Below are positions 29,412 to 56,333 of a DNA stretch of 64,000 nt, in pieces; the first letter of the stretch is position 1; each line of letters begins with the position of its first letter. Both the position numbers and the translations under genes were made by a program. Source of the DNA: Pyropia yezoensis (Eukaryota; Rhodophyta; Bangiophyceae; Bangiales; Bangiaceae); assembly GCA_009829735.1 (NCBI GenBank), contig CM020618.1, positions 42,422,878 to 42,486,877 of the forward strand. The letters run 5' to 3'. The notes beneath the pieces are model-generated. The model saw only the letters and a list, made by a program, of their open reading frames with translations. It had not been told where the DNA came from and made no database searches.

Positions 29412-31355
29412 CTAGGCACGCATGCTAGACTCTCCCACTCCACGGCCCTCGCCCTCACGTAGAGGCGAGCGGCGAGACCCACGCCGATAACGGTCTCCAC
29501 TTGTTGGAGGGGGCGGCGGCTCCAAGTCGGAACCGTCGCGTCCCTTACGGTCGCGCAAGTGGCGCCGACCGTGGCCACTCTTCTGCCTGGTCTTGCGCGC
29601 AAGTTTGCGACGCAGACGCTGGACAGACTCCGTCTCCGACGGGGTAGAGGACTCCGAAACGGAATAAGACAACTCGTCTTCCGATACGGAAGGAGAGCGC
29701 CGCGAGTGTCGGCGACGACGGCGAGGAGGCGAGTATGCCCGGCTCGCGCGACGTTTGCCACGCCCAAGTGGGGCTGGCTGGGGCATAATAGCCCCAATGC
29801 GAGCCAACTCGGCTGTCATAAACTCCGCCACCGACTCGCAACTCGCGGTCGCCACTGCAGTACGAACGCGCTCCTCAAGTTGAGGAGTCTCGGAACTCTG
29901 TAGGGTTGCGGTCGACGCGGCCAACCAGGAAATGGTGCGCACCAACGTGGTGATCATCATCTCTGAGGTTAGAGGCGTGGGCGGCAACACCAACTTGGGG
30001 TATACCGTCAGGAGGGTGGCCCCCAAGTTGGGGGACACCGGGGTGGAAGACTCCACGGCCACGCTGATCGGGATGTTCCCGTGAGGTTGGAAAGGAACAG
30101 GAGGAAGCGGAGGGGCCCGCCGAGGTGGCGGTACCCGGGTGTAACTGCGACCCCGACTTGGGGCCCCCGCAGTGGGTTGAGTCATATGGTCATCATAGGA
30201 CGGCACGGCCATAACTATGGGCTTGTCCGGGGGTGGCGCAGTGCGGCGATCCACCCCCGGGGCATACGGGTAGTCCCCGATGCCCAACCCCTCTCGTAGG
30301 ACCACACGGCCGTCGTGAAGTTCACGAGCGACCCACACGAACTGGCGAAGTGCGCCATCGTCCTTGGGCCCACGAGTGGGGCGGCGCAACTTGTGCTCAA
30401 TGCTCTCCCACTCGATAAACTTATGGAGCCGGAGCATCTCCTCAAGTAGAGTGAGTTGTCCTGATGAGCACCCCTCAGCAACTAGCTGAGGGGTGAGCTG
30501 TTCCAAACCTTGGAGGAGCCGGAGGGGGAGATGCCAGAGCATCCCCCGCCGCTGAACACAGGACACCCAGGTCGACATGACCTCGAGGAGCCACTGGGTG
30601 GCCAACATGGCCCACACCAGGTGATCAGGGGCAGCCGTCAACATGACGGAGCCGAAGTGGTCAAGCAACCGTGGCAACAACGCCGGGAACCTGTAGGGGA
30701 CCTCAACTTGAGGCCACCACTCGGGCTTCTTCGGATAGTACTGCTCCTTACTGGCAGCAGACTGTTGAGGAAACTCAAGTTGAGCCGAGGTCACCAAGTA
30801 GGGACCTCGCCGGAAGTCTTTCTCCATCCGCACATCAAAGTGATGAGTGTGCGGATCGGCCTCGTGGAGGTACGGTGGGCGAGTTGCCACAGCGTCCCAA
30901 GTGAAGGTCGGCAAGTCGCCGGGACCCGGGATAGTTCCCCCGCGGTCCACCATGGCCTTGGCACGCTGAACGTCCTCAACCTCCTCATCGTCCAGGAAGG
31001 CAAACTTGTCCGTCCTGAAGCCGGCAGGGAACCCGACCCTACGGGGATACTTCTCCCGTAGGCGGTCCCATACCCGGCCCATTGCTGCGCCAAGTCGGCC
31101 ACAGCGAAGAACAGTCAGCCCCTCCTCATAGAGAGGCCAAGCGGGGTAAAACCACCGCCCCAAGGCCTCACGCGGGACAACTCGTCCCGCCTCCGGGGGA
31201 GACCCCGACGTCAACCCAAAGCCGGGTGACGCGGGAGTCCCGTCCCTCGGAGCGATCGCGGAGCCCCCGCCGGAAGTCCCGGTGGGTGCTGCCCCGTAGG
31301 AGGTGTCCTCCATGCGCTCGTCAAGAGAGTCCGTCTCCACTCCTGGAGTCGCCAT
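29412..31355 (-). CDS. Element B antisense ORF (conserved unknown protein)
   Basis: Intact minus-strand frame between pol and the 3' LTR, convergent with pol (111 bp apart). The ATG at 31355 (MATPGVETD) gives 647 residues; the frame is open up to another Met at 31526. Residues about 215-316 hold the part shared with the antisense ORFs of C and A: YYPKKP, VEVPYRF, LLDHFGSV, then RGMLWHLP followed by two amphipathic helices ending LRLHKFIEW. The C-terminal 100 residues are Arg/Ser-rich (SPPRRRRRHSRRSPS), like an RS or nuclear-localisation region. No known domain was recognised. Plant Tat-lineage Ty3 elements are known to carry antisense ORFs, but I see no evidence of homology to them. Confidence 0.75.
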   Translation of the reverse strand: MATPGVETDSLDERMEDTSYGAAPTGTSGGGSAIAPRDGTPASPGFGLTSGSPPEAGRVVPREALGRWFYPAWPLYEEGLTVLRCGRLGAAMGRVWDRLREKYPRRVGFPAGFRTDKFAFLDDEEVEDVQRAKAMVDRGGTIPGPGDLPTFTWDAVATRPPYLHEADPHTHHFDVRMEKDFRRGPYLVTSAQLEFPQQSAASKEQYYPKKPEWWPQVEVPYRFPALLPRLLDHFGSVMLTAAPDHLVWAMLATQWLLEVMSTWVSCVQRRGMLWHLPLRLLQGLEQLTPQLVAEGCSSGQLTLLEEMLRLHKFIEWESIEHKLRRPTRGPKDDGALRQFVWVARELHDGRVVLREGLGIGDYPYAPGVDRRTAPPPDKPIVMAVPSYDDHMTQPTAGAPSRGRSYTRVPPPRRAPPLPPVPFQPHGNIPISVAVESSTPVSPNLGATLLTVYPKLVLPPTPLTSEMMITTLVRTISWLAASTATLQSSETPQLEERVRTAVATASCESVAEFMTAELARIGAIMPQPAPLGRGKRRASRAYSPPRRRRRHSRRSPSVSEDELSYSVSESSTPSETESVQRLRRKLARKTRQKSGHGRRHLRDRKGRDGSDLEPPPPPTSGDRYRRGSRRSPLREGEGRGVGESSMRA

Positions 31356-31693
31356 GGCTCTCCCCAAGTTGGGGAGAGACGCTCTGGCTATCGCAGCACG
31401 AGACCCGCCTCGAGTTGAGGGGGACTCGGATCGTGGGTATACGGGTGGCCTCCCCAGCGTGGGGCGGCCCAGTGGAAGGTGAAGGGGAGGTGGTGGTGAT
31501 GGTGAAGTGTGAACTGAGGAGAGCAAGCTGCCGAGTGGGCAAGCTTGAGGAGAGGGGCGGTCAACGTGACCGCCTCCACATCCGTGTTACGTACTCGATG
31601 GGGGACAGCAAGTCGCGCCCCCAACGCCGAGACGTGCGTTTACGCACCCCCTCACAGTGCCGACCGGGTCGGTCGGAACTGAGGAGAGGGGAG

Positions 31694-32162
31694 TGTGGCA
31701 GTATTGACCCCCAGGTAGGGGGGCAACACGTGCCATGCAAGGGGCGGCAGGCCACTAGCCTGATCCGTTCCTCCCCCTGCATTTGGGTCCATATTCCCTA
31801 AGTTTGGGATAGTTAGCTTAGTAGTAAATCCAACTTGGATTTGAGGGTTCTCTGCATTTATCGTCTTGAATTTTCGTGTGGCCCGGTGGGCAGGTGCTGG
31901 GGTGGGAGATCCTGAGTGGCGAGATTGTGAGTGGACCCTGGGGGGATAAGGGGAGGGACAGCGGGGCTTGGCCCTGCGTCCCCGTCCCGACCAAGAAACT
32001 GTTGGACCACACACCATCCTCTTGTTTGTCCGTGGGGGGTTTGCCCCACAACAGGGACAGAGTGTGTGCGACTTGCACTTCTTCCGGTTCCCCCGACACG
32101 GGAGGCAGCCCTAGCACACCGCCCCAACTTGGGTGCCGTGTGTGCTTGTGGTTTTTGCCACA
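31694..32162 (+). repeat. 3' LTR of element B
   Basis: 469 bp. Preceded by a purine tract (31681-31693) and followed by GTCTT. It differs from the 5' LTR at about four bases. Confidence 0.9.
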
Positions 32163-32167
32163 GTCTT

Positions 32168-33551
32168 CCGGTCGGTTCTTACTCCGGAACGTTATCGTTT
32201 GGAGGACCGATCTACCACCGTATCGGAATCGATGCGTATTACGTCGCACCGAGCGATTCGCTCTATGCAGACCCTTATGAAGGGAGTCTCTATGTTCGGG
32301 GGCCCCAACGGACGCCCGTTGGCAGTCATCGGCTTCTTGACTAGCTTCAAGGCAGCCGCGGACAAGGCGCTCGTCAACGAGGGGCTGGCCCTGGAGATCC
32401 TCCCGTTCTTTGTTGATGAACGGGTGCGAGGCATTCTTCGCCAGGCATCCCCGATGCCGGGAATGAGGGTCGCGGCCACCCTCATGGATTACCGTGGGAT
32501 TCTCAAGGAGCTGCTGAGCAGTTACCTCAGTGAGGACAAGTGCGAGGACCACTATCGGGCCCTTCGCACTGCCACCGCCCAGTCCTGGGAGGATGAAGAG
32601 ATGTTTGGACGCCGGAACCAAGAGCTCGACTACGAGCTGGGGAAGCTCCTCGGTGAAGGGGAACTACGGGCCATCCTGTTCGCAGGAGTACCCAACTACG
32701 TGCGGATATCCGCACGGGGGGCCAATACGACCCGGACGAACTTCAGTCGACTGATGCATATGTGCAAGTCCCTAGGGGACGCCTACCGGGTTCTACACCC
32801 GGAATGTGCCTTGGCCCCGAAGCCCAAGGGTGAGGGAGGCAAGCCCAGTCTTACCCCGGTACCGAGGCAAGAGAAGGTGGAATGTAAGGCCGCACCAGTA
32901 CTGGTGGCGACCGAACAAACCCCTACGGGCGAGGATGAACCTCTAGTTGACCATCAGGGCCACCTGTTCCTACCGGCGACGCCGGTGATTGATGAGCACG
33001 GTACGGTAGCGTACATTGCTCCGGCGGGGACCCAGTTCCAGGTCAGCGAGGGCACGGGACGTCGCGTCCCGTACGTACGGACTACGGGGTACTCCCCGGT
33101 GACGGGTAACCCTCACCAACCCTTGCCAACATGGGCGGTGCGCACGGAGGCACCCCCGCAGATTGCGGGCCGACCCAACCGGTTGGGGGAGTCCATGTTC
33201 CGGTTGACCCAAGGACCCAAGGCCTACCAGGGAGCAGGCACTCGGGCGCCTGAGGGAGGCAACCGCAGCTACGGGGCTACCCCGATGCGAACTCAAGGGG
33301 GGACCGGCACGTCCGGATGTATGTTGTGTGGGGATCCCCAACACTTGGTGTCTTCCTGCCCACTCATCCCCGAGGAGTCTCGGCGGGCAGCGGCGCAACG
33401 CAAGGCATCCACCGGGGGGTATCCCACCAGAGCACCCGGACCCGCACCGGGTAGGCAGCCAGCTCCGGGTGGAGTACTGGCCGTCGAGGAGGCACCTCCT
33501 CAGCCGGATGTCCCGGCGGACAGCACCCTACGAAGGGCGGGAAACGAGTAA
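32168..33551 (+). CDS. gag: Element A gag, 3' segment
   Basis: Continues the gag frame of 22213-23012 across the element B insertion. It holds the capsid-like core (MKGVSMFGGPNGRPLAVIGF through YVRISARGAN), a Pro/Gly-rich linker and one CCHC knuckle (CMLCGDPQHLVSSC, nt about 33319). It ends Ala-Gly-Asn-Glu-stop at 33549. This segment has no internal stop. Confidence 0.85.
33539..33545 (+). promoter_or_regulatory. -1 ribosomal frameshift heptamer, element A gag-pol
   Basis: G GGA AAC in the gag frame, then GAG TAA. The -1 frame GGG AAA CGA GTA AGA is open and passes in frame through the pol ATG at 33560. Confidence 0.7.
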
Positions 33552-33559
33552 GAGGAAGG

Positions 33560-36500
33560 ATGACCGGGGGGCGCTGGGGTAACCCAAGCAAGCCACCCCG
33601 GAGTACCGCGGGGAAAGCCCCACGGAGAGCGCGGTTGAGCCGACGCCGCATCAACCCCCGGGTACACCTTCCGGCCCCGACGACACGGCGTCAGGGGATT
33701 GATGACCAACCTCCAAGGTTGGGAGGAGAGGACGGGAAGCCCCGTCACGTTGAACCAGCCAAGGGCCCTGTCCAGGATGCCCGAGGAACACCGGGTATCG
33801 GTGTAGGACATGTGCTGTTCACCTTGGAGAACTTCAAGGTGTCAGCCACACTGGGGGCTGACCCCCAGTCGACACGATCGTACTACCCTGTACTGGATAC
33901 AGGGGCTGGACCCAACCTTATCCGGAAGGATACCCTCCCGGACAAGTGGCTTCCGCGAGTCAGAGTGACTCGGGGACCCACCATCAAGGACGCGAATGGT
34001 CGCCTCATTCGTACGACCGCAGCGATGTCGCTGCGGGTTACCATCGGGGAACTCACCACGGCAGTCGACTTCCTGGTGTGTGAGACCCTATCGGTGCCCT
34101 GCATATTGGGATGCACCTTCATCAACGTTCACGTTGATGCAATCCGGCCGGGCCGGAGGACCGTCGAGCTGCAAGAGGCCGACGGGACGAAGCGAGGACA
34201 TACGGCTATCGTCAGGGACCTGACGCTACAAGGGAGCCACGTTAACGTGGCTGAGGTGTACGCAAGCGTCGAGCCGAAGACACTTCGGTTGGCCAAGCGA
34301 ACTCGCTTTGAGCCGTTGTCGGAGACAGTCCTCCCGGTTAACTGTGACCTCGCAGGCATCTGCAGAGTCCGGTCCAACCTGCGGACGTACAAGCGCCATG
34401 GGTTGACCATGGCCAACGGTCTCATAGACCTCCCAGCAGGAGGGTCGTCCCTCCTAGTGATGGCGAACTATCGCCGTAAGGCAGTTACCCTCCCGAAGGG
34501 AACTATCCTCGGGATTGCCGAACTCTACGAAGGAGATATCCTTACCACTGACAAGGAAGGTCAAGTGGAACCACTTGAGGTACTGGCGGCCGCCGAGACC
34601 ACTGAGCGACAGCAACCCGATGACGGGAAGCGTAGCCCATCGGCGGCTCCGGCGGACAGGCCACCAAAGGACCAAGAAGCCTTGAAGGCACTGGCCGAGG
34701 CTGACCTCGACCACCTTCCCCCTTTGGTAGCCGAAGGGGTACGACGAATGCTAAGAAAGCATGACGTCATGTGGACAGGCGGGGCCTTGGGTACCATTGG
34801 GGCAACCCAACATCGTATTGACCTGGTACCAGGCGCACGCCCCGCCCGGTCACAACCGCACCGAGCGGGACCTATGCAACGGGAGATCGTTGATGGAGAA
34901 GTGAAGAGGATGAGCGAAGCGAAGGTGATACGACCTTCGATGTCGGAGTGGGGTGCCCCAGTCGTTATCGTACCGATGAAGGATCAAACCCCTCGGTTTT
35001 GCATCGATTATCGACGCCTCAACTTGGTTACCAAGAAAGACTCATACCCTTTTCCAAGGATGGATGAATGCATCGACTCCCTGGGGGAAGCTACGGTGTT
35101 TACCACCATCGACTGCAATGCCGGATACTGGCAGATCCCGGTGACGGACGAGGATATCCCCAAGACGGCATTCGTCTGTCACAGTGGAGTGTACGAGTTC
35201 CTAAGGATGCCCTTCGGATTGTCCAACGCCCCCGCTACATTCCAGCGGGCTATCGACATTATACTGTCGGGGGTGAAGTGGCGTTACTGCCGAGTCTACC
35301 TTGATGACGTCATCCTCTTCTCGCGGAACATGGATGACCATGTGCAACATGTTGACGAGGTACTCACCCTCTTGAGGGACGCCGGGGTAACCCTGCGTCT
35401 GAAGAAGTGCGCCTTCTTCCAACAGACGGTCGAGTATCTGGGTCACCAGATAACCCCTGGTAAACTAGGGGTACTCGAAGCCAATACCCGGGCACTCCGG
35501 GATGCCCGGTTCCCTAACACCCAGACACAGCTCAAGAGCTTTCTGGGAATGTGCAACGTATACCGACGGTTCGTCAAGGACTTCGCTCGGATAGCCAAAC
35601 CGTTAACGGTTCTTACGAGCAGTACCTTGCCCAAGGTACTCCAACCCCCTTCGCCTAGCGAAGAGGAGGCATTCGAGTCGCTGAAGCGAGCCCTACTATC
35701 CCCACCCGTCCTTGCGTTACCGCACAGACGGGGGACCTTCGTCATCGATGTCGATGCGTGTGATACACAAGTGGGATGCACCCTGTTACAGGGAGAGACG
35801 GTGATCGGTTCCGATAACGTTATCCCGGACCTACGTCCGGTAGGGTACTTCAGCCGGACACTCAACCCGGCTGAGCGTAACTATAGTGCCACCGAGCGTG
35901 AATGCCTCGGAGTTATATGGGCAGTGCAACTGCTCCGTCCATACCTGGAGGGCTCCAGGTTCATCGTGAGGTCCGACCACGAACCCCTACGATGGCTCCT
36001 CAACCTTGGTGACAAGGATTCCGATAGCCATGGGAGGCTAGCCCGATGGAGGCTGAAGATGGCCGAGCACGACTACCGTACCGTGTATAAGGCTGGGTCA
36101 ACCCACCATCTCGGAGACGCATTGTCTCGCCTCGACACCCCGAGCGGGGATACCCGCCCTGTGGACGAGGACATCCCGGTGGTACCGGTGTGCATGGTGG
36201 GTAATGCTACCCAGGGTATGGTTGACCATACCATGGCACACCTTGCGTGCCCATTGACCCTCGCGGACTTCCGCGAGGCACAGGCCAATGACGATGACTG
36301 TAAACGCCATCGTGCTAACCTCCTGGCCGGTACGGCCGGCATCTTCTCCGAGAACGAAGACGGACTCATATACCGGCGGGCACCCGCCGATGGACGACAT
36401 CAAGTCGTGGTTCCCGTGTCCTTACGACAAGCCGTCATGGAACGAGAACACGAGAACCCTACAGCCGGACATCCGGGGGGTTCACGTATGTTCGCAGCAA

Positions 36501-37136
36501 TGCGAAGGTTCTTCTACTGGACAGCAATGGCCGTCGACGTGGTCGACCACGTAAGGGGATGCCACCCCTGTGCACGTAACCGCATGAGTCTACATAGGCA
36601 GGCATCTGCCATGAAGCTATTCCCACCCGATGGGCCCAACGAGCAAGTCGCTATCGACATACTCGGGCCACTTCCCGTAACGGAAGAAGGGAACAGGTAC
36701 ATCCTGGTCATGTCTGACCGCTTTACTAAGCTGTCACGAGCGGCAGCCATCCCGAATGATACGGCATACACGATTATGAACGCAGTGGTTGACCACTGGA
36801 TCAGTGCATACGGAGTCATGAAGCAACTACTCTCCGACAACGGAGCAAACCTTACGTCAGCATTCTGCACTAAGGTCCTGGGCATGTTCGGCATCGAACC
36901 ACGTCGGGCATCCGACTACCACCCGCAAACCAACGGGCAGGTGGAGCGGTTCAACCGCACCATCGTCAAGATGCTACAATGCTACGTGGCCGAGCACACA
37001 AACACTTGGGACAGGCTTCTGTCCGTACTCACCCTGGCATACAATGCCAGGCAACATCGGAGCACGAACATCGCTCCGCTGGAGTGGGTCATGCCACTAG
37101 GCGTCGGTAACCTGACGCTGCCACCAGGCAGGTGCA
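33560..37136 (+). CDS. pol: Element A pol, protease to integrase core (interrupted by element C)
   Basis: Open from the frameshift site to the insertion of element C with no stop. Protease VLDTGAGPNLI (Asp near residue 113 from 33560). Reverse transcriptase FCIDYRRLN (about 482), TIDCNAGYWQIP and YLDDVILFS (about 582). RNase H VIDVDAC (about 730) and TERECLGVIWA. Integrase zinc finger (ending HPCARN) and DDE residues in AIDILGPLPV (about 1033), LSDNGAN (about 1093) and NGQVERFNR (about 1128). The frame is completed by 52921-53510 after one copy of GTGCA, for about 1388 residues. All catalytic residues are present, so A was probably competent before C inserted. Confidence 0.9.
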
Positions 37137-37707
37137 TGTGGTATAAAACTCGATCCTCTCAGACACGTGTCTATATCCCTCGGGGGAAAGGGACAGGTAA
37201 CATAGAAAGGGGAACTACGAGAATGGTATGCCTGTTGCCTCACGTGCCTGCTCGCAGAGCAAACAGATACGCACGGTAGTGCACACGGGGAAGAGGAAAG
37301 CAAACGCGCAGTTGTCTTTTTCCTGAGGGCGCGGGCCAAGGGCGCCTCGCTGTCCCTCTTAACGTGCATCTGGGGGAGCCTCGGCACGTTGGCCAGGTAG
37401 CCCCCCCATAACCCCGAGTGGCCCCGACCCGAGTCTAACCTCGTCAGGTCGGGGGCCACTATCACTACTAATTCTATTCCCACTCACTAATCTCACACTC
37501 AAATTCTCTCAAATCAAGTCCCTCACAAGTCTGCAAAAACCCATCAGCAATCCCTCTCTCACGTGTCGATAGCGTAGTCCACCGCATCCCAGTGCCGGGC
37601 ACGGGCCACGGCCGCCAACCATCACCACACGGCGGGCGTGTTCTGGCACCTGGTGCCCTCTGGTTGTAGTCCCGGGTCGGCGCCAAGTCGGGGCCAGGGA
37701 TGCTACA
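37137..37707 (-). repeat. 3' LTR of element C
   Basis: 571 bp. On the minus strand it runs from TGTAGCATCCC to TTTTATACCACA. It differs from the other LTR only at the third base from its minus-strand end. On the plus strand the LTR begins TGTGGTATAAAA, so an antisense TATA box sits a few bases from its edge and points toward the antisense ORF. Confidence 0.9.
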
Positions 37708-37891
37708 TAGCTCCCTCCCTAGTCCGGCACGTCCTCGGGCCGAACCAGGTGCCACCGTGCACAGCCTCGAGCACGTCCACACCGGTGCCGAGGTCGAGCG
37801 TCTTCACCCTGGTCACGATCACCTGCTCCGGTTCTCTGCCCCCCTTCTCTCCTTCACCTTGGTCCTCGCGTTCCCCCGGAGTCTGGACGTC

Positions 37892-40009
37892 ATGTCCAGT
37901 TCCGAGATCCAAGCTGGGCCCGTGGTTCCGGCGGCGAGTGTTGCGGAGGAGAACTCGGGTAGTCGCGCCCCTCTCCTGCCTCCGGTTCCTCGGGTGTCGA
38001 TGTCGGCGCCGGTCGCCACGGCGGGGACGGATCGGGTTCCCCCGGCTTCTGTGATGCACCCGGTCGAGACCCCCCCGGTGGGTCTCCCGGAGATGCTTCT
38101 TGGGCAGGACCCTCTGGCGGCCCGGCGTTACTCCACGGTGGTCGGCAACGCCGGCGCGGCGCAGTGCCAGCAGGATTGCTTGGACCTCTGGCGCAAGGAA
38201 CTCCAGCGCGGGGTCTTGACAGAGATGGATAAGGCTCGTCTTCACACGGCGGACCAGATGCGCCTGGCACAAGACCGCTCCCAGAGCTTCTCGGGTTCCT
38301 CTTGGGTTGCTCGTCTGGAGGATCTCCCCTTCGCGCTGGTGCTGGATCTGCCCTTGACCGAGCGTCGCGTGTCCGCGTCCGTTCTCCGGTGGCCGGAGGA
38401 GGAAGGGTACGTCCACCGGGCGCTCAAGGTCTGGGACGAGGCGCTCAAGGGGTCGGGGAGCCTGAACTGCGACCCCCGTCCGAGCATGGTCGCTCTGGAG
38501 CCGCCTTTCCTGACCCGGAAGTACTCCAAGTTGTCACCGGCACGGGAGCAAGGCGAGCGACGCGGCCGTCAGCGTGACTTCCTCGTGAGCTGCAACCATC
38601 AGGAGTTCTGGAAGCTGGATAAGGCTAACCGGGCGGCGTACTACCCCAAGATCATCCCGCAGCAGCAGGAAGTCGAGATCCCGGTCGGGTTTGCTCCTTC
38701 CAGCATCCCCTTCACCTGGTACTTCTTGGACGCCTTGACTCAGGCGTCGATCAAGGGCTTTTTCCACTCGATCCCGTACATGATGTACACGTCCGAGATG
38801 ACAGTCTTGGCGGCCAACCACTGGCTTCACGAGGTCTTGGTGTCCAACCGGCTTTGGTTTCTCCCTGACCTCCTGATGGTCTGGATTGTCGACAAGTTGA
38901 CCGTCGACTTCCTGTGCAGCCAGGACGAAGAGTACAAAGGGCTCTTCCAGGCGATGATTGACTTCCGGCGTCTGGTGCCGGTGCATGACCGGAACTTCTT
39001 GAACGCGATTGCCGACCAGAACCGCCCGCGTCGGGATGGCTTCGGTTGGGCGCAGGTGGTCTACCAGTCTTCTCCGGCCAAGGTGCAGCTGGCGACGCCG
39101 CTTCCGGCGTGGCCGCAGCTAGGTAGCTTTCCTGCCCCGGGCGCCCTTGATCTTCTGCCAGTTGGGCCGCCGGTGCAGGAGTCGGGATGGGCCGCGGCGG
39201 TCGGTCAGGCGTCTGCGGCGGCTCCGCTTCCTCCTGTTGCACCTGTCGCCCCGGTGGCCTCGCCTGAACCGTCGCCGGCGCGTTCACGCCCTGTTCCGGC
39301 TGTGCCGGTACTTCAAGCTCCTCCGGCACCGCGCCTGTCTGCGGCGAGTCGGGGGGTGACCGTGCGGTCGCTTACCACTCCGGCCGCTCCGCCTCGGACG
39401 CCTTCTTCCAACGCCGGCGGCGCTGTGCCTCCGCTGGAGTTGGGTACTCCGGTTTCGGGGGCCGTTGTGGACCGTCCGGTGGTGTCATCCTCGGGGCGGT
39501 TCGAGATTTCGGCGCCGACTCTGCGCCTTACCCGCTTCCGGGTGCCTGACTGGTACCTGAACCAAGGTGGCCCGACATGCGACCAGTACGACGTCGGGAT
39601 GATTGAAGACTAGCTGGGTCGTCTTCCGGTGCAGGTTGAGGGCGTCGGGTCTTCCCTGGTGCTGGGCACTTACGCCAGCGTCGTGAACAACGTGGTTGAC
39701 CGGGTGCTTACTTGCGCGGACAGCGGCCAGATGTCGAACAGCCCGGTGGTTGGCGAACTTCTGGCGACCTTGACGCGGCATGGCTTGGCCCAGCAGTGGT
39801 CAGAAACCTTCATTGGCTTCCAGGGGCGCCGACGGGCATATCTGGATGAGCGGGAGCCCCCGGCAACTACCGGTACTACTCCGATGGCGTCATACCGGGA
39901 TGTACCGCGTCCACCGCACTACGTCATCCCGTCTTTCTCCGGTTCCCGTCGTGCCGCGGAGGCAGCGCTGGAGGACACTCCCGCGGCTCAGCGTCCGCGC
40001 CGGGAGTAG
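37892..40009 (+). pseudogene. Element C antisense ORF (conserved unknown protein, one TAG)
   Basis: Antisense to the gag-pol of C, convergent with pol (145 bp apart). The first good ATG is 37892 (MSSSEIQAG); the frame is also open further left into the LTR. Residues about 258-365 carry the shared core: AAYYPKIIP, VEIPVGF, then NRLWFLPDLLMVW and two helices ending FRRLVPV. A Pro/Ala-rich linker follows. A TAG at 39611-39613 (residue 574) interrupts the frame. The same frame continues for 132 codons that hold a second segment resembling the end of the A protein (LTRHGLAQQWSETF versus VIDRQDIADRWSTEV). The TAG is therefore likely a nonsense change or readthrough codon in a longer protein of about 705 residues. 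Confidence 0.7.
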
Positions 40010-46002: not shown

Positions 46003-46163
46003 GTTGGTCTCTTGACAGCCACAGTCCAGTTGCCTGCGTGTCCAAAGATCGCCAGACCACAAGAGAGGGGTTGGAGAGCCAGGAATGGGATTCCCGTGAA
46101 CGGGTGCAAATAACTCCCAAACCACAGAAAAAGACAGAACAGGAACAACCCAACCGCTGCTCC

Positions 46164-46882: not shown

Positions 46883-49800
46883 TCACTCCTTGACTCTTGG
46901 GAGCAGGAGCTTCAGTTGTTCCAGGAACTCATCCTTTGCCTTGGGACCTGACTTCAGTGCAGGCTGGAGACCGTCTGGTATTCTTTCCAGGAAGAAGTTG
47001 GTCAGCCGCCTTGGGGTGACAAAGTCGAGTGGAGCGACTCCCGTTGTCCGGTGAACTCGGGAGTTGTAGGCTAGAGTGAGGACAGCCAGGAGCTCGTCCC
47101 AGTCTTCTTGGTGCTCCTCCACGTAGTGCCGTAGCATGTCCACTAGGGTCCCGTTGAATCGTTCCACCTGGCCGTTCGTTTGCGGGTGGTACGTCGTGGT
47201 GTACAAGTTCTTGATGCCCATCAGGTCACAGAGTCCTTGGAAGAACAGGGATGCAAACTGGGGACCATTGTCGGTTAAGACGGAGTCTGGAGGGCCGTAG
47301 GCAGCTATCCAGTACTCGCAGAAGGCTGACGTGACATCCAGAGCCGTGATGGTCCTCAGCGGGATTGCTCGAGTGAACTTGGAGAACCGGTCACAAATGA
47401 TGAGCAGGTATATGTTGCCACTGGATGTTTCAGGTAGGGGCCCCAGGATGTCCATGCTTAAGCTTGCAAAGGGCTCCGCCGCAGGGAATAGGCGTAGCTT
47501 AGAAGTCTTCTTCCTCTGGGACAACCGGTTCCTTGCACACGAAACACAAGCCTCCAGGTACTTATGGACGTCACTGGCCATGGTTTCCCAGTAATAGTGT
47601 CGTCTCATGGAAGCATACATCCGATTGATACCAGGATGTCCGGCCTGGGGAGACGAGTGCTCCAGGCGTAGGATGTCAGCTCGTAGGCCCCGGGGTACGT
47701 AGACTTGAGTGGCCCCATCGAAGGGTGATACCCGTACTAGGAGTCCGTCCGTAGACTCGGAGAAACGACTGTTCCGGTTCAGGTCCATTTGGTGGCGAAG
47801 CTCCAAGCATTGAGGATCCGTCAGTTGGGCCTCCAGCATCCGGTGAATGGTCACCGGTTGATGAGCTTCAGGTGTCTCATACAGGGGAGCGTGCCAGCCA
47901 CGTCCGACATTCGGGAGGATGAAGCAAGGTATTTCCTCCGGGATAGGACCGGTATCGGCTGCAGGAGTCCCCAGCCGGGACATGGTGTCGGCGCAGTGGT
48001 GCTCCCTCCCTGCTCTGGTGCACACCTTGTACTTGAACTCCGAAAGGCGTAGGCGCCACCGGGCGACCCTTCCTTGACTGCTGTCCATGCATAGCAGCCA
48101 CCTTAGACTGGCGTGATCCGTCCGGATGAGGAACTCTTGTTCTTCAAGATATGGCCGTAACAGGAAGCAAGCCCAGACGACTCCCAAGCACTCGCGCTCC
48201 GTCGTGGAATAGTTCTTCTCGGCTGGAGTCAAGACGCGACTGTAGTAGCCTATCGGGAGGAAGTGCCCATCAGGTTGCTGCTGGAGTAGTGAGCACCCCA
48301 CCTGGACGCCACAGGCATCAGTCTCCAGAACAAACTGGCCCTCCCGCTTGGGTAACGCCAGTACTGGAGTGGTGGTCAGGCGCTTCTTGAGCTCTTCGAA
48401 GGCCGCGGTCTGCTTCTCGTCGAACACCGGGAGTTGTGCGGGAAGCTTCTTGCTGGTAAGCTTGGTCAATGGCCGGGCAATCAGAGCATAGTCCCGTACG
48501 AACCGGCGATAGACGTTGCACATACCCAGGAAGCTCTTGAGTTCCGTCTGGGTTTTGGGTTGCCGTGCATGCCGGAGGGCCTTGATGTTCTTCTCATTGA
48601 CTCGGAGCTCCCCCGGACTCAGCACATGCCCCAGATACTCCACCTCAGTCTCAAACAGGTGGCACTTCTCGGCCTTGGGGGTAACTCCAGCCTTGGACAG
48701 GAGGGCCAGGACCTCCCGAAGGTGCTCCAGGTGTTCCGCTGGGGTCTTGGAGAAAACGATAATGTCGTCCAGGTAGACCAAACATGTTCTCCACCTTAGC
48801 CCGGACAGGATGATGTCGATGGCTCTTTGGAAGGTTGCCGGAGCATTGGTGAGACCAAAAGGAAGACGCTTGCACCGGAATAGTCCCAGGTGGCACGTGA
48901 AGGTAGTCTTGTCCTTGTCCTCGTCAGCCAGAGGGATCTGCCTGTACCCGGCATTACAATCCAGCGTCGAGAAGAGGGTGGCATCACCAAGAAAGTCGAG
49001 GCAATCATCCATCCGGGGTATCGGGTATAAGTCCTTGACTGTCATCTCGTTCAGGCGCCGGTAGTAAACGCAGAAACGGAAGTGACCGCCGGTTTTCGGG
49101 ACGACTACCACCGGGAAAGCCCACTCGCCATCAGACGGCTCAATAACATCCATCTTGAGCATCTTGTTAACCTGCTTTTCAATCTCATCCCGGCGATGAG
49201 GTCCAGCCCGACATGGTTGCATGTGCACTGGCTTAGCTTCCGGCTTGAGTTGAATCCGGTGTAGAGTGGCGTCCATCTTGCCCAGCTCTCCCGACCACAG
49301 GTGCCGATATTCCTGGAGAAGCTTCTCCAGCGCCTCCTTCAAGTCGGGAAGGAGATTTTCTTGCTTGACCTTCGGCATCCCGGGTGGTGCTTGTTCGGGT
49401 TTCGGAGTAGCGCTGCCAGCCTGCTCTTGTTTCGGAGGTACGTCTAAGGCCGTCAAGTTGGATGCCAGTTCTTGTTGCAGGTTCAGGAGGTCTTCCTTGC
49501 TCATAGCACGGGCGGATCCCCGGTAAGGCTCTGCTGTACCAACTCGGGTGCCCTTGGCGAGGGTTATTGGCTTCCGGCTCACGTTGACGATTAGCACCGA
49601 GAACGGGGTGTGCCTTTCTACCTTCTTGTGATGTCCGTGGGCCAAGTATAACCGGTGTTTCGCCAGAAATTCCTTACGTCCGTAGATCAGGCATTGACCT
49701 GCAATCCGGGTCGTTACTTGAACCTTGGTCTCCGAGCGAGGAGGTAGGAGCACCGGTTTGAAGAGATTCAAGGTAGAGGGTGGGATGCGTTCCCTCTTGC

Positions 49801-50377
49801 TCTTGGCTACACGAACCTTGGCGTCTAGATGCTCCAATACCGGTGACACAAACCCATGGTTGAACTGGACCTTCCCTTCTCCGGGTAGGATGCTCTTGAC
49901 ATGCTGCTTCTGGAAGTCCCAGCCTAGGATGAGGGGGACTGGTAGGGTCTTGACTACTAGAAAGGGAAAAAGCATTGGTTCATTGTTGACATAGATGGCG
50001 ACAGGAAGACGGCCAAGCGGTCGTAGGGTTTGACCCGAAACGTCGACGATATGGGTCCGGGTAGGCGCTCTCCAGGCATGTCGACGCCAGCCCGGAGGTA
50101 ACAGGTTCTCAGTGATGAAGCTTGGTCCAGCTCCCGTGTCAACCACCGGCGTAACAGCTTGGGGGAGGCTATCCCCCACACGCATACGAGCATTAATCTT
50201 GAGGTTTTCTTTACGCAGGACGAGCAATGTCCCCTTGAACAAACAGGGTGTCCAGGCGGCTACCGGTTGAGCGGGTAACTGCCGTCCCTTCTCCCGGCAC
50301 GCAAGGGGAGAACAGGTAGAAGTACCCTGCCGTCGGAGATTCGGGACGACACTTGGGGAGAGCGCCTGCCCTACTCG
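46883..50377 (-). pseudogene. pol: Element C pol, second copy (TGA before chromodomain)
   Basis: Same reading as the first copy, displaced by 6128 bp, including the TGA (46883-46885), the VYYR variant and all catalytic motifs. The chromodomain continuation (46664-46882) is cut by the gap. It also carries single-base length differences (a C-run, an A-run and a missing G) that break its frame; these look like low-quality sequence at a contig edge. Confidence 0.85.
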
Positions 50378-52131
50378 TTTCCCGGGTCCGAGGAGTCCTT
50401 AGAGGTTTCGGTCTCCAGGTCAAAGTCCGTAGGAGCTTCCCTTGCCAGAGCCTCCGTGATGCTCTGTAGGGTTGCCACTCGGATTGCGTGTACCTGTGCC
50501 TGGTCCATCTTGGAGGGTGCTCGCCGGACAGCCCAGTTGACCGCCTTTGCAAACACCAGTCCTTGACGCTTGAGTTTCTCCTGGAGGTCCTTGGGAATGG
50601 TCGGGCACTGGTAGGACATGTGATCCTCCTTCTGGCACAGCCAACAAGACCGGAACCGCTGGTTCTTGACTTGCTTGGGGGCGACCAGGGATGGTTGCTC
50701 CTTGGAAACGAAGCCGCCCCACTTGTCCCCTGACCCCATGGGTGAGGCCTCGCCAACTGCGAGTACCGGTACAGGGCTATCACCTCCCTTATATTTGTCG
50801 GGTCCGGGCCGAACTCGCGACAACGGCTTGGGAGTTGATACCATGGGAGCTTGGAGGGCCTTGGCTTGCCGGTACTTGCCCTGGGTGTAGGCCATCAACT
50901 GCTGGAAGGTATGTTCTTGATGCTCCTGGTTGTAGTTCTCCGCATCCACTTGAAGATATTCAGGAAGCCCTTCCGAGAAGATCATCTTGAGCCTGTCCTC
51001 AGGGTAAACGTTGCCACAAGCATCGCTCATCTCCCGGACACGACGGGCGAGCGCCTCTGGAGTCTCTTGTCTTTCCATGGTTGCCCGGTTCAGCCTGCCG
51101 ACTGCTTTACGCAGAGAGTCCGCGTCAGCGTAGTTGGACAGGAGCCAGTTGACCGCCTCCGGATAACTCGCGACGGTACGTCCGACATTGTGTCCGGAAG
51201 AGTCTGGTAGAACCTGTGCAAACCGCTGTTCCGCTTCTCCGGTCATGAAGTTAACCAGGAGGTAGAGAGCCTTGCCCTCGGACACATCGTTGTCACTGCA
51301 TGCCTTGACAAACCGGCGCAGGAAGGCAAAGATAAGCGCCGGTCTCTTCCAGGAAAACTTAGGATGTCCCCCGAAGCTCGGCTGCATTCGCCGGTTCAGG
51401 GACGCCATCTTCTTGGCCATCTTCCGGGTGTAACCTTGGTCTTGGTTCTCCAGCCGGTAGTTACCCCAATACGTGACCTTGTTCAGGGTGGCATCTCCCA
51501 CTTGGTGGGCAGGGAAGTCAAACTCGACTAGCCTGCGCCGGGTGGGACCGGGAGATGCATCCCAATCATATCCCTCCTCAGAGCTGGAGGAACTGGTCTC
51601 GCTGGTGCTAGAGCGACGGCGATGACGCCGACGCCTTCGGCTGCTCCGGTTACCGGTCTCGGAGCTCCCCGCCCCATAGGATGCAAGGGGAGAAAAAGCT
51701 TGGCCGGTCCCAGGAGTCGAGGTCTCAGGGAGACCCGTAGAACCAGTCACAACGGTGCCTCTGGCATCGCTAGTGCCCACAGGAAGAGGTGTATACACCC
51801 AACTGCCATGTGTGGGTCCAGGAGTAAACACACCAGGGGCTATCCCTGGAGGTTGAGGAGTAGAACCGACAGGAGGACGACGTCTGCTGCGAGCGGACTC
51901 AAACGCCGTTGACCCCGGGGTGGCTCCCACAGGAGGAACAGCCGGAGGAACGGGAGCAGGTGGTGCTTGGCCGCCTGTGGACTCCAGTCCGCTACCGGGT
52001 GTCACACCCAGGTCTGCTTCACCCGTAGGGAGAACGCCGGGTTGGGCACCGTCCCCCGCGGTGACCAGGGATGCGTCAAGGGACGCGGGGTCTACCCCTT
52101 CGGGCACCGTCGTGCCAGGGAGGGTAGCCAT
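50371..52131 (-). CDS. gag: Element C Gag, second copy (intact)
   Basis: 586 residues from ATG 52131 (MATLPGTTVPEG); an upstream in-frame Met at 52254 is less likely. Pro/Gly/Thr-rich N-terminus, Ser/Arg-rich stretch (RSSRRRRRHRRRSSTSE), capsid-like domain (FAFLRRFVKACSDNDVSEGKA and neighbours), CCHC knuckle CWLCQKEDHMSYQC and an acidic tail ending Gly-Asn-Glu-stop in the frameshift signal. The capsid-like part is clearly related to that of element B. Confidence 0.9.
   Translation of the reverse strand: MATLPGTTVPEGVDPASLDASLVTAGDGAQPGVLPTGEADLGVTPGSGLESTGGQAPPAPVPPAVPPVGATPGSTAFESARSRRRPPVGSTPQPPGIAPGVFTPGPTHGSWVYTPLPVGTSDARGTVVTGSTGLPETSTPGTGQAFSPLASYGAGSSETGNRSSRRRRRHRRRSSTSETSSSSSEEGYDWDASPGPTRRRLVEFDFPAHQVGDATLNKVTYWGNYRLENQDQGYTRKMAKKMASLNRRMQPSFGGHPKFSWKRPALIFAFLRRFVKACSDNDVSEGKALYLLVNFMTGEAEQRFAQVLPDSSGHNVGRTVASYPEAVNWLLSNYADADSLRKAVGRLNRATMERQETPEALARRVREMSDACGNVYPEDRLKMIFSEGLPEYLQVDAENYNQEHQEHTFQQLMAYTQGKYRQAKALQAPMVSTPKPLSRVRPGPDKYKGGDSPVPVLAVGEASPMGSGDKWGGFVSKEQPSLVAPKQVKNQRFRSCWLCQKEDHMSYQCPTIPKDLQEKLKRQGLVFAKAVNWAVRRAPSKMDQAQVHAIRVATLQSITEALAREAPTDFDLETETSKDSSDPGNE
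50377..50383 (-). promoter_or_regulatory. -1 ribosomal frameshift heptamer, element C (second copy)
   Basis: GGGAAAC then GAG TAG. The pol frame is open from here with no ATG for a considerable distance (the pol frame near 50242 begins with TTG, not ATG), so frameshifting is the natural way to express pol. Confidence 0.75.
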
Positions 52132-52322
52132 GTTGGTCTCTTGACAGCCACAGTCCAGTTGCCTGCGTGTCCAAAGATCGCCAGACCACAAGAGAGGGGT
52201 TGGAGAGCCAGGAATGGGATTCCCGTGAACGGGTGCAAATAACTCCCAAACCACAGAAAAAGACAGAACAGGAACAACCCAACCGCTGCTCCCAAATGTC
52301 TCTTCTCAAACACTCTAATCAA

Positions 52323-52340
52323 TCCCCTGCTGCTCCACCA
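52323..52340 (-). other. Primer-binding site of element C
   Basis: TGGTGGAGCAGCAGGGGA on the minus strand, four bases inside the 5' LTR. Identical to the sites of A and B. Confidence 0.7.
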
Positions 52341-52344
52341 AATA

Positions 52345-52915
52345 TGCGGTATAAAACTCGATCCTCTCAGACACGTGTCTATATCCCTCGGGGGAAAGGG
52401 ACAGGTAACATAGAAAGGGGAACTACGAGAATGGTATGCCTGTTGCCTCACGTGCCTGCTCGCAGAGCAAACAGATACGCACGGTAGTGCACACGGGGAA
52501 GAGGAAAGCAAACGCGCAGTTGTCTTTTTCCTGAGGGCGCGGGCCAAGGGCGCCTCGCTGTCCCTCTTAACGTGCATCTGGGGGAGCCTCGGCACGTTGG
52601 CCAGGTAGCCCCCCCATAACCCCGAGTGGCCCCGACCCGAGTCTAACCTCGTCAGGTCGGGGGCCACTATCACTACTAATTCTATTCCCACTCACTAATC
52701 TCACACTCAAATTCTCTCAAATCAAGTCCCTCACAAGTCTGCAAAAACCCATCAGCAATCCCTCTCTCACGTGTCGATAGCGTAGTCCACCGCATCCCAG
52801 TGCCGGGCACGGGCCACGGCCGCCAACCATCACCACACGGCGGGCGTGTTCTGGCACCTGGTGCCCTCTGGTTGTAGTCCCGGGTCGGCGCCAAGTCGGG
52901 GCCAGGGATGCTACA
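52345..52915 (-). repeat. 5' LTR of element C
   Basis: 571 bp, ending CCGCA on the minus strand. Flanked outside by GTGCA. One base different from the 3' LTR. Confidence 0.9.
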
Positions 52916-52920
52916 GTGCA

Positions 52921-53510
52921 CTCGGTATGATAAACCGAGAGGCCGACCGGCCGAACGTATCCACCTAGCTTGGTTGTCCAAGCTATCGTGGATGATTCCT
53001 AAGCTCAAGGGTGCCCTTGACAGAACACAACTTCGATACAAGAAGAACTTCGACGCCCGGCTACGGGTGTGCAACGCAACCCTGGTAACTGGTGACTGGG
53101 TCTATATCAGACACCAGAAGTTCCGAGGGAACAAGCTCATGCAACCGGTCAAGGGACCGTACCAGATCTTACACAGAGATGATCGCTCTGTCATGCTGCT
53201 CTCCGATACGGAGATACAACGCATCAACATCAATGATGTGACACCTGCTCCGAAGCCGGAACAGCCTCAGCCGGTACCGGCCGGGTTGCTAAATGAAGCT
53301 CTTACAACCCACCGGTCAGATGACCCGGTGGGACCGGATGGGATTCCATACCAAGTAGAGAGCGTGGTCGGACACACCGACCCGGACCTACCAGGACCCT
53401 GGTACGTCAAGGTTATGTGGGTCGGATACGACTCACCCACCTCGGAACAGGCGGCAAATATACCCCGCCAACTCCTCATGCCTTACATGAGGCGACGACG
53501 CCTACTGTAA
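52921..53510 (+). CDS. pol: Element A pol, integrase C-terminus and chromodomain-like end
   Basis: Continues the pol frame of 33560-37136 after element C. It contains the RTQLRYKKNFDARLR segment, the GPY-like module (VKGPYQILHRDDRSVML) and a chromodomain-like end (ESVVGHTDPDLPGPWYVKVMWVGYDSP). It ends at TAA 53508-53510. No stop interrupts it. Confidence 0.85.
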
Positions 53511-53963
53511 CAACCCAACCGACAACGACTTCGGCTGTTGGGGGGTGAGGCTATACCTACTAAGTAGGGTGTCACATGGTTACGGCAGACTTAGGTTTCT
53601 AAGTCGAACCAAGCTTAGGTAACTAAGTAGATCCAAGCTTAGGTAACTAAGTAAATCCTGAACCTTAATAAGTTAACTTAAAGGTAAAGGCTAACTCCGG
53701 TGATATCGAAGTAACTAGGGAGCTTACAAGGGAGGATAACCTCCCCAAGCCAAGACACAAAGTAAGGGAGGATGACCTCCCCAGGCAAGAACCATCCGGA
53801 AGAAGTTGGACGGGAGGCAATGCACCACTGAGCCAGAAGGGGTACTCCCCAGGGCAGCAAACAGAGGCAAGCAATGCCCCCAAAGGGGATGAGTTTATAC
53901 TCACTACTACCCGGCCACCATAAGGGCCACCGGGTCCCTCTCCCGTACAAACAATAACACTCC
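53511..53963. repeat. Hairpin-rich spacer between convergent pol and antisense ORF of A
   Basis: Contains three tandem units of about 24 bp, each with a small hairpin: ACTTAGGTTTCTAAGT at about 53589 and CTTAGGTAACTAAG at about 53614 and 53638. CCTACTAAGTAGG lies just upstream. The run 53590-53700 is AT-rich compared with its surroundings. It would be a natural place for transcripts from both sides to end; that role is inference. Confidence 0.6.
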
Positions 53964-56333
53964 TCAGTGGGTAGACCCACTGCCCGAGGGAGGGCACTCA
54001 CGCGTAAGCGCGTATACCTCCGTGCTCCACCGGTCGGCGATGTCTTGACGGTCAATCACCCGAGTTACCTCGGTGCATAGCTGGACGAGGGTGCTGCGGC
54101 CAGCCTCCATGTCCTCCAGAGCTCTCTGGAGGCGGTCAAGCACGCCACCGAAGCAACGCGCTGACCCAACCAGCGCAGCACCTGGGGGGATATCCCCCCA
54201 GCTAACAGAGAGACCCCCACGCATTGCGCGGGTAACAAGGGCGTCAACGCCCTCATACCAGAGACGGGGACTCCCGTCTTGTATGACAGGGGCGGGAGGG
54301 GACACTGGCGCAGCCAGAGGAGCCAGAGGAGCCGACACGGCCACCACCGGAGCCGGTGGCGCCTGATATGAGGCCCGGTAGGACCCCACCGAAGGGGCTC
54401 CACCGTAACCCCGGCGGGGCTCTGCCCGACGACGGGACACCTCACGCTCCCCACCCGCAGAGCCCCACTCTTGGGGACGACGGCCAACCGCCGCCGGTAT
54501 CGGGTTACCGAACCACAGGGCAAGGACCTGAAGAGGGTCATGGATAACCATGGGAATACCCAAGTCAGCAACAGCCTCGGTGGACGCCCACCCATGGCAA
54601 TTGGGCTCACCCGGCTGAGTACGCCGGATACGCAACGAGTGACGAGGCAAGGGGGTAGCCCCAGCCTGCGGGTCCAGATACGGGGGAAGGGCCACCACCC
54701 CAGCCCAGTTCACGGCATCGTGAACAGCCAGCAGGGCTTCGAACTCCCGGGCCAACCCGGTCTTGGCAGCTATCAGGTCCACGCCCAACTGCGCGATGTG
54801 CCGACGGACACCCGTCGGAAGATGAAACAGGCGCCCCTGCCGGCGGACGGACAGCAAGAAGAAGGAAGCCTGCCCGAGGGTAACCTCAAGGGTGAAGGTA
54901 CCCTGCAACGGGTGGACCGGTCGGGAGGCCAACACACTCCCGAAGTATCGGAGACAGGAGCCGGTGTCAAACCGGAAAGCAGGGGCGAGTTCCCACCCCT
55001 CCTGCCATAGCGGCGGGCGCACGGGAGTGTATACCGGCGCACGACCGTTGCCGGTCTGCAACGCACACGTTATATCGGTGCGGAACGCATCCACCATGAC
55101 ACCATGGTTACGTCGCCAGCTCGACGCCGACTTCAAACCCGCCATAGGCTGGTGGGGAGCCGTCAACGACAGATACGGGGATACCCCCGGGTAGTAATCA
55201 AAGTCGGGATACCGACTGGTATCGCCCATCGTCTCCCCATACGCAACCGGCTCCGCCGCCGCCGCAATCCCCCGAGCACTAGCCGGGTATTCAACCTCCC
55301 GCGGCAACGCGGGGGCAATCAGGTCGCATACCCCGAAGGCGGGGTCGAGGTAGACCTCACCCCGTCCCACCCGGGTGCGCCAGAGCTGCGCATGCCGGTC
55401 GTCCGGCTGACTCAGGATCCAATGGTGTTCCACCCGCACCGCGTTCGGCTGGTTGACCAGCCGCACCAACTCCCGCTCCCAACTCGGATCCACCTTAACG
55501 CGCCGGGAGGACTCTCCACGGGGAAGCCGCTGGTGGAAGTCCACCCGCATCCGCCCATCGGACTCCATTGACTCTTGCACAGTCAGGCCGCGAACCCGAG
55601 CCACCAAGTCGAACATCGACATGGCGGGTTGTCCCGCCGCCACGGCGACGCCGCCACCCAACGGGGCAACCCGGGCAGGACCAGGAAGAATCGGGGGCGC
55701 CGGGGGATGCCCCACCGGCAGATGGACCGGTGCCGGAGGGGCACGGGGCCGAGGAGGAAGAAGAAAGGCGGGCGCCCGCCCGGAGTAACTACCGGAGTCC
55801 ACTGCCATCGGTGTAGACCCACCTTGACCACCAGACGCCCGCGGCACCGCGGGCAGAGCAACGCCGCCACCCGAGCCCGACGGGGGCACCTCGGGGGCAG
55901 CAGGGGTAGACCCGTCACCCGCAGCCGCGGATGAACCACCCGGGCGGGCACCCGCGCCGTCTTGACCCGCCGTCCCGGTCGGGGTGCCACCATAACCGCC
56001 CGACACGCCGGCGACGCCGTCTTGAGGTTGAGCCGCGCCGGCACCGGCGACAGGAGCCATCCGGGCCGCCGGAGGAGTAGGGGTAGACGCAGCAGCTACC
56101 CGCGGTTGCCCGCCACCCGACGGAGCCGTCGTGCCGCTGCACACGGACGACAAACCGCCCGGGGCACCGTCCGGAGCCACGCGAACGGTCACCCGGTCGT
56201 CCTCGTCCTCCGACGAGCTCGCTAAGAAGCACTCGGCGGCGGTGGCAAAGACGGGAACGTCTTCCACCATCACCTCTTCCTCCTCCTCAAGCAGGAGGTC
56301 GTCCTCGCCCCCGGGTACCTGGGGGTCCGACAT
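53964..56333 (-). CDS. Element A antisense ORF (conserved unknown protein)
   Basis: Intact 789-codon minus-strand frame between pol and the 3' LTR, starting at ATG 56333 (MSDPQVPGG). Acidic N-terminus (residues about 9-25 and SSSEDEDD near 40), then about 200 residues rich in Pro/Gly/Ala. Residues about 450-545 carry the shared core: FRFDTGSCLRYFGSVL, RRQGRLFHLP, then helices ending VHDAVNW. A C-terminal helical segment ends RQDIADRWSTEVYALTRE, similar to the end of the C protein. A TATA-like TTATAAG lies on the minus strand at 56447-56441, about 105 bp before the ATG, and is kept in the two downstream tandem copies. Function unknown. Confidence 0.75.
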   Translation of the reverse strand: MSDPQVPGGEDDLLLEEEEEVMVEDVPVFATAAECFLASSSEDEDDRVTVRVAPDGAPGGLSSVCSGTTAPSGGGQPRVAAASTPTPPAARMAPVAGAGAAQPQDGVAGVSGGYGGTPTGTAGQDGAGARPGGSSAAAGDGSTPAAPEVPPSGSGGGVALPAVPRASGGQGGSTPMAVDSGSYSGRAPAFLLPPRPRAPPAPVHLPVGHPPAPPILPGPARVAPLGGGVAVAAGQPAMSMFDLVARVRGLTVQESMESDGRMRVDFHQRLPRGESSRRVKVDPSWERELVRLVNQPNAVRVEHHWILSQPDDRHAQLWRTRVGRGEVYLDPAFGVCDLIAPALPREVEYPASARGIAAAAEPVAYGETMGDTSRYPDFDYYPGVSPYLSLTAPHQPMAGLKSASSWRRNHGVMVDAFRTDITCALQTGNGRAPVYTPVRPPLWQEGWELAPAFRFDTGSCLRYFGSVLASRPVHPLQGTFTLEVTLGQASFFLLSVRRQGRLFHLPTGVRRHIAQLGVDLIAAKTGLAREFEALLAVHDAVNWAGVVALPPYLDPQAGATPLPRHSLRIRRTQPGEPNCHGWASTEAVADLGIPMVIHDPLQVLALWFGNPIPAAVGRRPQEWGSAGGEREVSRRRAEPRRGYGGAPSVGSYRASYQAPPAPVVAVSAPLAPLAAPVSPPAPVIQDGSPRLWYEGVDALVTRAMRGGLSVSWGDIPPGAALVGSARCFGGVLDRLQRALEDMEAGRSTLVQLCTEVTRVIDRQDIADRWSTEVYALTRECPPSGSGSTH

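What the first reader, a model, noticed from the sequence alone, without database searches (positions are those of the whole stretch)
29412..56333. A conserved antisense protein family carried by three different Ty3/gypsy elements
Elements A, B and C differ in LTRs, gag and orientation. Each nevertheless has a 650-790-codon ORF on the strand opposite pol, placed between pol and the 3' LTR and ending 111-453 bp from the end of pol (A 53964-56333, B 29412-31355, C 37892-40009). By eye, the proteins share a core. B and C share YYPK, VE[VI]P and a hydrophobic helix. All three share [RN]xLWxLP-like (RLFHLP, MLWHLP, RLWFLP), followed by two helices of similar spacing. A and C also share a C-terminal W-S segment. 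Conservation of amino acids across families while the DNA has diverged argues for selected protein function. Antisense ORFs are known in plant Tat-lineage Ty3 elements and antisense genes in some retroviruses, but I recognise no known domain here.
Basis: partly seen in the sequence, partly recalled or inferred. Interest (0 to 1): 0.88.

Follow-up and report, generated by a model that had tools for sequence, protein, structure and literature searches.

The report
Antisense gene family in seaweed retrotransposons
Five families of jumping genes in what appears to be the nori seaweed genome each carry an extra gene written backwards beyond their main genes, and these genes encode related proteins of unknown function with no match in the databases searched; in the three families tested, natural selection has kept the protein intact.

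Summary
The genome matches the published Pyropia yezoensis (nori) assembly in contig sizes and GC. Elements B and C are nested in element A; each has a long ORF beyond pol on the opposite strand. The proteins share a core (BLASTP A-B 7e-10, B-C 6e-7; A-C only through profiles). The ORFs recur in many genomic copies and are under purifying selection (dN/dS 0.10-0.37; 0.22 in B copies chosen by integrase instead of by this ORF). A's protein has Pyropia vietnamensis relatives (four at 43-51%, one at 30%).

Two further families, D and E, have an antisense ORF in the same place with the same core.

Corrections: the window's C copy stops in frame at codon 574; C's gap to pol is 745 bp; the gags are homologous; the A-C C-terminal similarity is borderline.

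No significant Pfam or PDB match and no Transposase_28 in the genome; both AlphaFold models are unusable. Best guess: an old accessory gene of this Ty3 lineage, product probably nuclear, acting on the element's own copies. It is a new protein family in a layout known from plant Tat elements. Expression and function are untested.

The parts
53964..56333 (-). antisense ORF of element A, 789 codons; shared core about codons 430-550
29412..31355 (-). antisense ORF of element B, 647 codons; shared core about codons 200-322
37892..39613 (+). antisense ORF of element C; this copy has an in-frame stop at codon 574, other copies read run to codon 706; shared core about codons 245-368
21626..61527 (+). 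element A, with B and C nested in it; LTR 21626-21988, 3' LTR copies at 56920-57281, 59043-59404, 61166-61527
23013..32162 (+). element B; LTRs 23013-23481 and 31694-32162, 99.1% identical; 5-bp target-site duplication GTCTT
37137..52915 (-). element C; LTRs about 37137-37707 and 52345-52915, 99.8% identical; 5-bp target-site duplication GTGCA
33560..37135 (+). pol of A, first part (protease, RT, RNase H, integrase); interrupted by C, pol frame resumes in the ORF 52908-53510
25544..29300 (+). pol of B in two ORFs (25544-27142, 27747-29300)
40755..44114 (-). pol of C (downstream copy of the internal duplication)

Best explanation
Shown: families A-E of one Ty3 lineage of this red alga carry, beyond pol and on the other strand, one homologous protein gene; in A, B and C it is kept by purifying selection. 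Inferred: the gene was present in their common ancestor and serves the element. It is transcribed separately, from a promoter in or near the 3' LTR, as maize Grande GENE23 and HTLV-1 HBZ are. Its product is a soluble, largely low-complexity protein with one helical core that enters the nucleus and acts in trans on the element's own DNA or RNA, most likely by regulating transcription or countering host silencing. Odds: homology and selection 0.97; serves the element rather than the host about 0.85; nuclear regulatory role about 0.5.
For: Homology. Same place and strand in all five families whose layout was read: A and C once each in the window, B in 30 of 30 loci, D and E in one locus each. Selection. 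Copies (capped lists): B 68, A 57, C core 150. Closest pair by BLASTP score is D-E, which also have the closest integrases. No transmembrane-like segment in A-E (all at or below 1.54 on the 19-residue scale; 1.66 in the metagenome relative); 58-68% P, G, A, S, R, Q, E or D. B, D and E have strongly basic 40-residue stretches (+10 to +17). The plant GENE23 analogue is nuclear and has its own promoter (PMC7264820, passages).
Against: No transcript, protein, localisation or target was seen; the promoter is assumed. A and C have only weakly basic stretches (+5, +4), so a shared nuclear signal is not shown. LTRs of D and E were not identified. In the tight core, A-B identity (26%) exceeds D-E (24%), so congruence with pol is loose. 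A profile without B does not find D (29 of 1000 shuffles score as high). No fold: pLDDT 33 and 37.
Confidence: 0.55

Rival explanations
1. The ORFs are a by-product of GC-rich, stop-poor DNA, or belong to an antisense RNA that works without being translated.
For: Long stop-free runs occur in this GC-rich window; antisense RNAs without coding function are known in LTR elements (PMC7264820 passages; PMC10186651 abstract).
Against: N/S is 0.22-0.50 of a mutation-matched neutral expectation, below all 200 replicates in each of four sets. The protein is conserved between families and in another species. An additional RNA role is not excluded.
Confidence: 0.02
2. Self-recognising anti-silencing factor (in the manner recalled for Arabidopsis VANC proteins): each family's protein binds motifs of its own copies and keeps them from being silenced. 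This is a narrower form of the best explanation.
For: Inference: strong constraint within a family together with large divergence between families (core 15-26% against integrase 45-64%) is what self-specific recognition would give.
Against: gag diverges about as much between families (24-28%), so fast divergence needs no special cause; no DNA-binding domain recognised.
Confidence: 0.2
3. A structural or envelope-like protein: part of the particle, or a cell-to-cell movement factor.
For: It sits where env sits; its divergence resembles that of gag.
Against: Antisense orientation; no transmembrane-like segment in A-E and no hydrophobic N-terminal 40 residues above 1.27; no BLASTP similarity to gag or pol better than E 0.38.
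Confidence: 0.12
4. A host gene captured by an element, still serving the host in some copies or simply carried along.
For: P. vietnamensis relatives are annotated as ordinary hypothetical proteins.
Against: Shared by five families whose integrases differ at 36-55% of positions and selected in the three families tested. The matches found are multi-copy, but those lists are capped and a single-copy host gene was not sought separately.
Confidence: 0.1

Closest known systems
Antisense ORFs (aORF-3R; TRP28/Transposase_28) of plant Tat-lineage Ty3 elements: Retand, maize Grande GENE23, rice RIRE2
   Same: Gene between pol and the 3' LTR, antisense to gag-pol, in most copies and in several families; Grande's product is nuclear and has its own promoter (PMC7264820 passages and section 5; PMC11963269 passages).
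   Different: No Transposase_28 (PF04195) match in the whole genome at E up to 1 nor in the proteins scanned; host is a red alga. Kinship too distant for HMMER is not excluded.
Boty element of Botrytis cinerea and Sclerotinia
   Same: Listed as a non-plant element with such an antisense ORF (PMC7264820 section 5).
   Different: Fungal; its protein was not compared here.
HTLV-1 HBZ and other retroviral antisense genes
   Same: Antisense gene under 3' LTR control that acts on the provirus (PMC10186651 abstract).
   Different: HBZ is a bZIP protein (recalled); no bZIP Pfam match here. Promoter position is not known here.
Pyropia vietnamensis hypothetical proteins MMPV_009242, 008948, 008454, 001347, 008444
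   Same: Direct relatives of A's protein: four at 43-51% identity, one at 30%; each aligns to the core wholly or in part.
   Different: Annotated as ordinary genes; their element context was not read here.

Membership tests
Plant Tat/Retand antisense ORF (TRP28) | ORF between pol and 3' LTR, antisense to pol | tested here: met
   A, B, C with both LTRs in the window; D and E beyond pol, LTR not identified
Plant Tat/Retand antisense ORF (TRP28) | Transposase_28 domain (PF04195) | tested here: not met
   0 matches at E up to 1 in the genome; no match in the proteins
Plant Tat/Retand antisense ORF (TRP28) | Carried by a non-chromovirus Tat-lineage pol | tested here: inconclusive
   B's integrase has a sub-threshold Chromo hit (E 3e-4, 20.9 bits against cut-off 25.1); no pol phylogeny was made
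Plant Tat/Retand antisense ORF (TRP28) | Antisense transcript from its own promoter; nuclear protein | not testable with these tools
   No RNA or localisation data
Retroviral antisense regulator of the HBZ type | bZIP domain | tested here: not met
   No bZIP Pfam match
Env-like additional ORF | Sense orientation and transmembrane segment | tested here: not met
   Antisense; no transmembrane-like segment in A-E
One homologous family across elements A-E | Significant similarity of the core linking all five | tested here: met
   A-B, B-C, B-D, B-E, D-E significant by BLASTP; A-C, A-D, A-E, C-D, C-E are not significant pairwise and rest on profiles; the profile without B does not find D

The most novel reading that the evidence does not exclude
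Red-algal Ty3 elements possess an old, lineage-wide, antisense-encoded trans-acting protein, unrelated to the plant Tat (TRP28) one, that recognises the family's own copies and shields them from host silencing. The same layout would then have arisen independently in red algae, land plants, fungi and retroviruses, because a convergent 3' promoter gives independent control of a regulator.
Probability: 0.18. Interest if true: 0.82.

Novelty: new variant of a known kind. Interest (0 to 1): 0.63.

Why it matters
Conserved antisense genes in LTR elements are described mainly in flowering-plant Tat elements and in retroviruses, and in plants their function is unknown (PMC7264820, PMC11963269, passages). 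Here another protein family, without the plant domain, is shared by five Ty3 families of a red alga and is under measurable purifying selection in three. That makes the question of what such genes are for open to comparison across kingdoms. 48% of the P. yezoensis genome is repeats with LTR elements predominant, and its genes were predicted after repeat masking (PMC7423979, passages), which would hide genes of this kind.

Tried and rejected
Rejected: chance ORFs; a gag-derived or env-like protein; membership of Transposase_28. An apparent sense-orientation copy in L083 proved to be an A element inserted in an E element.

Led nowhere: Pfam scans (a sub-threshold DUF6214 hit in A, E 0.074, taken as chance). 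Profiles against PDB sequences (none; one hit at E 2.1, taken as chance). AlphaFold2 models with mean pLDDT 33.1 and 36.8; for that reason no fold search was run. Of the 150 RT hits I read eight loci: D, E, six more (L080-L085). L083 is an E copy. The other five (L080, L081, L082, L084, L085; pol about 25-33% identical to A-C) belong to a more distant lineage, and no ORF of 150 codons or more there matched the core (best E 0.22). Nested insertions cut several, so absence there is not proven. L086, beside a distant match at G000:C1:30710414, showed no pol in the 2.4 kb read: inconclusive. A scan for polyadenylation-like motifs between pol and ORF was uninformative. C-terminal segments: of 15 pairs, A-Av is strong, A-C and D-E borderline (6 of 500 shuffles each), the rest not above chance. 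Literature: ten searches of an open-access library listed no paper on antisense ORFs in red-algal elements; most subscription papers are not in it. Passages of two likely papers (PMC12477816, PMC8282616) mention none.

Full report
Where the window lies. It is G000:C1:42422878-42486877 of a 107.5-Mb assembly whose three large contigs are 43.59, 34.33 and 29.39 Mb. The published Pyropia yezoensis assembly has scaffolds of 43.6, 34.3 and 29.4 Mbp and 65% GC (PMC7423979, passages), and the only named relatives of the protein are from Pyropia vietnamensis. I therefore take the host to be P. yezoensis (nori); the genome itself is unnamed here.

Anatomy. Self-comparison gives three LTR elements, two nested in the third. 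B (23013-32162, +) and C (about 37137-52915, -) have 5-bp target-site duplications, GTCTT and GTGCA. A starts at 21626 and ends at 61527 (flanks CCCCT/TCCCT, one mismatch) after a tandem repetition of its last 2.1 kb. Each has pol domains and, beyond pol, a long ORF on the other strand: A 53964-56333, B 29412-31355, C from 37892. C's ORF in the window ends at an in-frame stop, codon 574. In 14 of 14 other C copies read, the first stop is at codon 706. These 14 were chosen from the 149 other matches for an open core, so they do not measure how often the ORF is broken; 12 of 14 begin with the same Met.

They are one family. BLASTP gives A-B E 7e-10 over 232 residues and B-C 6e-7 over 166. None of 1000 local shuffles reached these scores; for A-C (E 0.022) 31 did, so A-C directly is not significant. 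Profile comparison gives A-B E 3e-6, B-C 1e-4, A-C nothing. Profiles built without a family still find it: A 28.8, B 34.9, C 28.1 bits; best shuffles 3.8, 9.6, 7.2.

Two more families. D (L078) and E (L079) were picked from the RT hits by their different open-frame lengths. They have antisense ORFs of 995 and 880 codons (stop to stop) 156 and 41 bp beyond the pol ORF. Their LTRs were not identified. BLASTP: D-E 9e-19, B-E 4e-7, B-D 7e-6; A-C, A-D, A-E, C-D and C-E are not significant pairwise. The A-C profile finds D at 20.3 and E at 28.2 bits; no shuffle of 2000 each reached that. One leave-out control fails: the profile without B gives D 1.3 bits, and 29 of 1000 shuffles do as well. With E as query, the genome search also gives matches at 25-31% identity in other long frames, two of them with the 724-codon frame length of B and so probably B copies. 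Integrases of A-E are 45-64% identical, tight ORF cores 15-26%, gags of A-C 24-28%. D-E is the closest integrase pair and the highest BLASTP score among the ORFs, although in the tight core A-B (26%) is slightly above D-E (24%). One gene in the common ancestor, evolving about as fast as gag, fits this; no tree was made.

Other species. A's protein has seven hits: two near-identical unnamed proteins (90 and 93%) and five from P. vietnamensis (51, 47, 46, 43 and 30%). B's protein alone found one, 95% identical. A C-plus-B profile found one C protein, 98% identical, and a 611-residue metagenome protein that is 34.5% identical to B over 284 residues. In each search only about 8000 candidates sharing most words were scored.

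Selection. B, 30 copies ranked by the ORF itself: dN/dS 0.10, 29 of 30 open. In the same loci the integrase end gives 0.29 (24 of 30 used; six with more than 30 gaps dropped), and copies differ by 1.5% in the ORF against 4.5% in the 3' LTR. Ranking by the ORF biases dN down. So I took 18 B loci by integrase hit whose ORF was not in the list: 13 have a nearly full-length ORF, 3 a part, 2 none; 5 of the 13 are intact when read by themselves. With the window copy (14 sequences) dN/dS is 0.22. A: 16 sequences, the window and 15 of the 56 others, all picked among stop-free ones: 0.37. C: 15 sequences, codons 1-573: 0.23. As a control, each copy's changes were placed at random on sites of the same base and CpG state. 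Observed N/S is 0.26 (B by ORF), 0.22 (B by integrase), 0.50 (A) and 0.30 (C) of the neutral mean, in each case below the lowest of 200 replicates. pN/pS is lowest over the core in A (0.17, codons 401-500) and C (0.06, 201-300); in B it is low nearly throughout (0.16 at 201-300, 0.17 at 401-500), and A codons 101-200 are nearly free (0.84). The other five frames carry stops in every copy. One frame of the other strand also has a low ratio (0.21-0.44), because its third positions coincide with the ORF's, but it has a median of 9-25 stops.

Copies. Matches scored, lower bounds: B 68, 64 without a stop; A 57, 40 without; C core 150, 149 without; D 6 close ones, 6 without; E 22 at 92% or more over the 421 residues searched, 21 without. 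The ORF is opposite to the integrase in 30 of 30 B loci; for A and C this was read only in the window, for D and E in one locus each.

What the protein is. No significant Pfam or PDB-sequence match and no Transposase_28 in the genome. Between 58 and 68% of residues are P, G, A, S, R, Q, E or D, and there is no transmembrane-like segment in A-E. The core reads as a hydrophobic helix, an L-x-x-LP-like turn and a further stretch that ends in W in most families (alignment). The most basic 40 residues are +10 in B, +17 in D, +12 in E, but only +5 in A and +4 in C. Both AlphaFold models are too weak to use, so the fold is unknown.

How it may work. Position, strand and selection match the plant aORFs, of which Grande's is transcribed from its own promoter and encodes a nuclear protein (PMC7264820, passages). 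By analogy I infer an accessory gene with a promoter on the 3' side whose product acts in the nucleus on the element's own copies. Transcription, localisation and target are not shown.

Compared with the known. The layout is known from plants, a fungus and retroviruses. The protein family, and its presence in a red alga, were not found in ten searches of an open-access library. Because the defining Transposase_28 domain was tested and not met, I do not file it as a Tat/TRP28 ORF; it resembles one in layout.

Noticed in passing
9730-11319 (-) and 13466-15049 (-): Two neighbouring ORFs about 86% identical in DNA; the first has Sigma70 regions 1.2-4, so probably duplicated nuclear genes for plastid sigma factors. 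The second was not scanned on its own.
   Followed up: partly
55158-61527: The end of element A (start of the antisense ORF plus LTR) is repeated as 2123-bp tandem units, giving two truncated extra copies of the ORF's beginning (57006-58574, 59129-60697).
   Followed up: partly
40535-46163 and 46664-52292: Element C holds a 99.9% identical direct duplication of its gag-pol part between its LTRs.
   Followed up: no
17485-20175 (-): Long ORF with DDE_1 and Tc5 HTH domains, a DNA transposase; a 97% identical piece lies in L084.
   Followed up: no
61686-63407 (+): ORF with a reverse transcriptase match (RVT_1, E 1.8e-9) just beyond element A.
   Followed up: no
G000:C2:6117750-6118514, C1:8629408-8630172, C1:30710414-30711250: Further distant matches (26-31%) to the D or E core in long frames, perhaps additional families; the stretch beside the third was read without finding pol.
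   Followed up: partly
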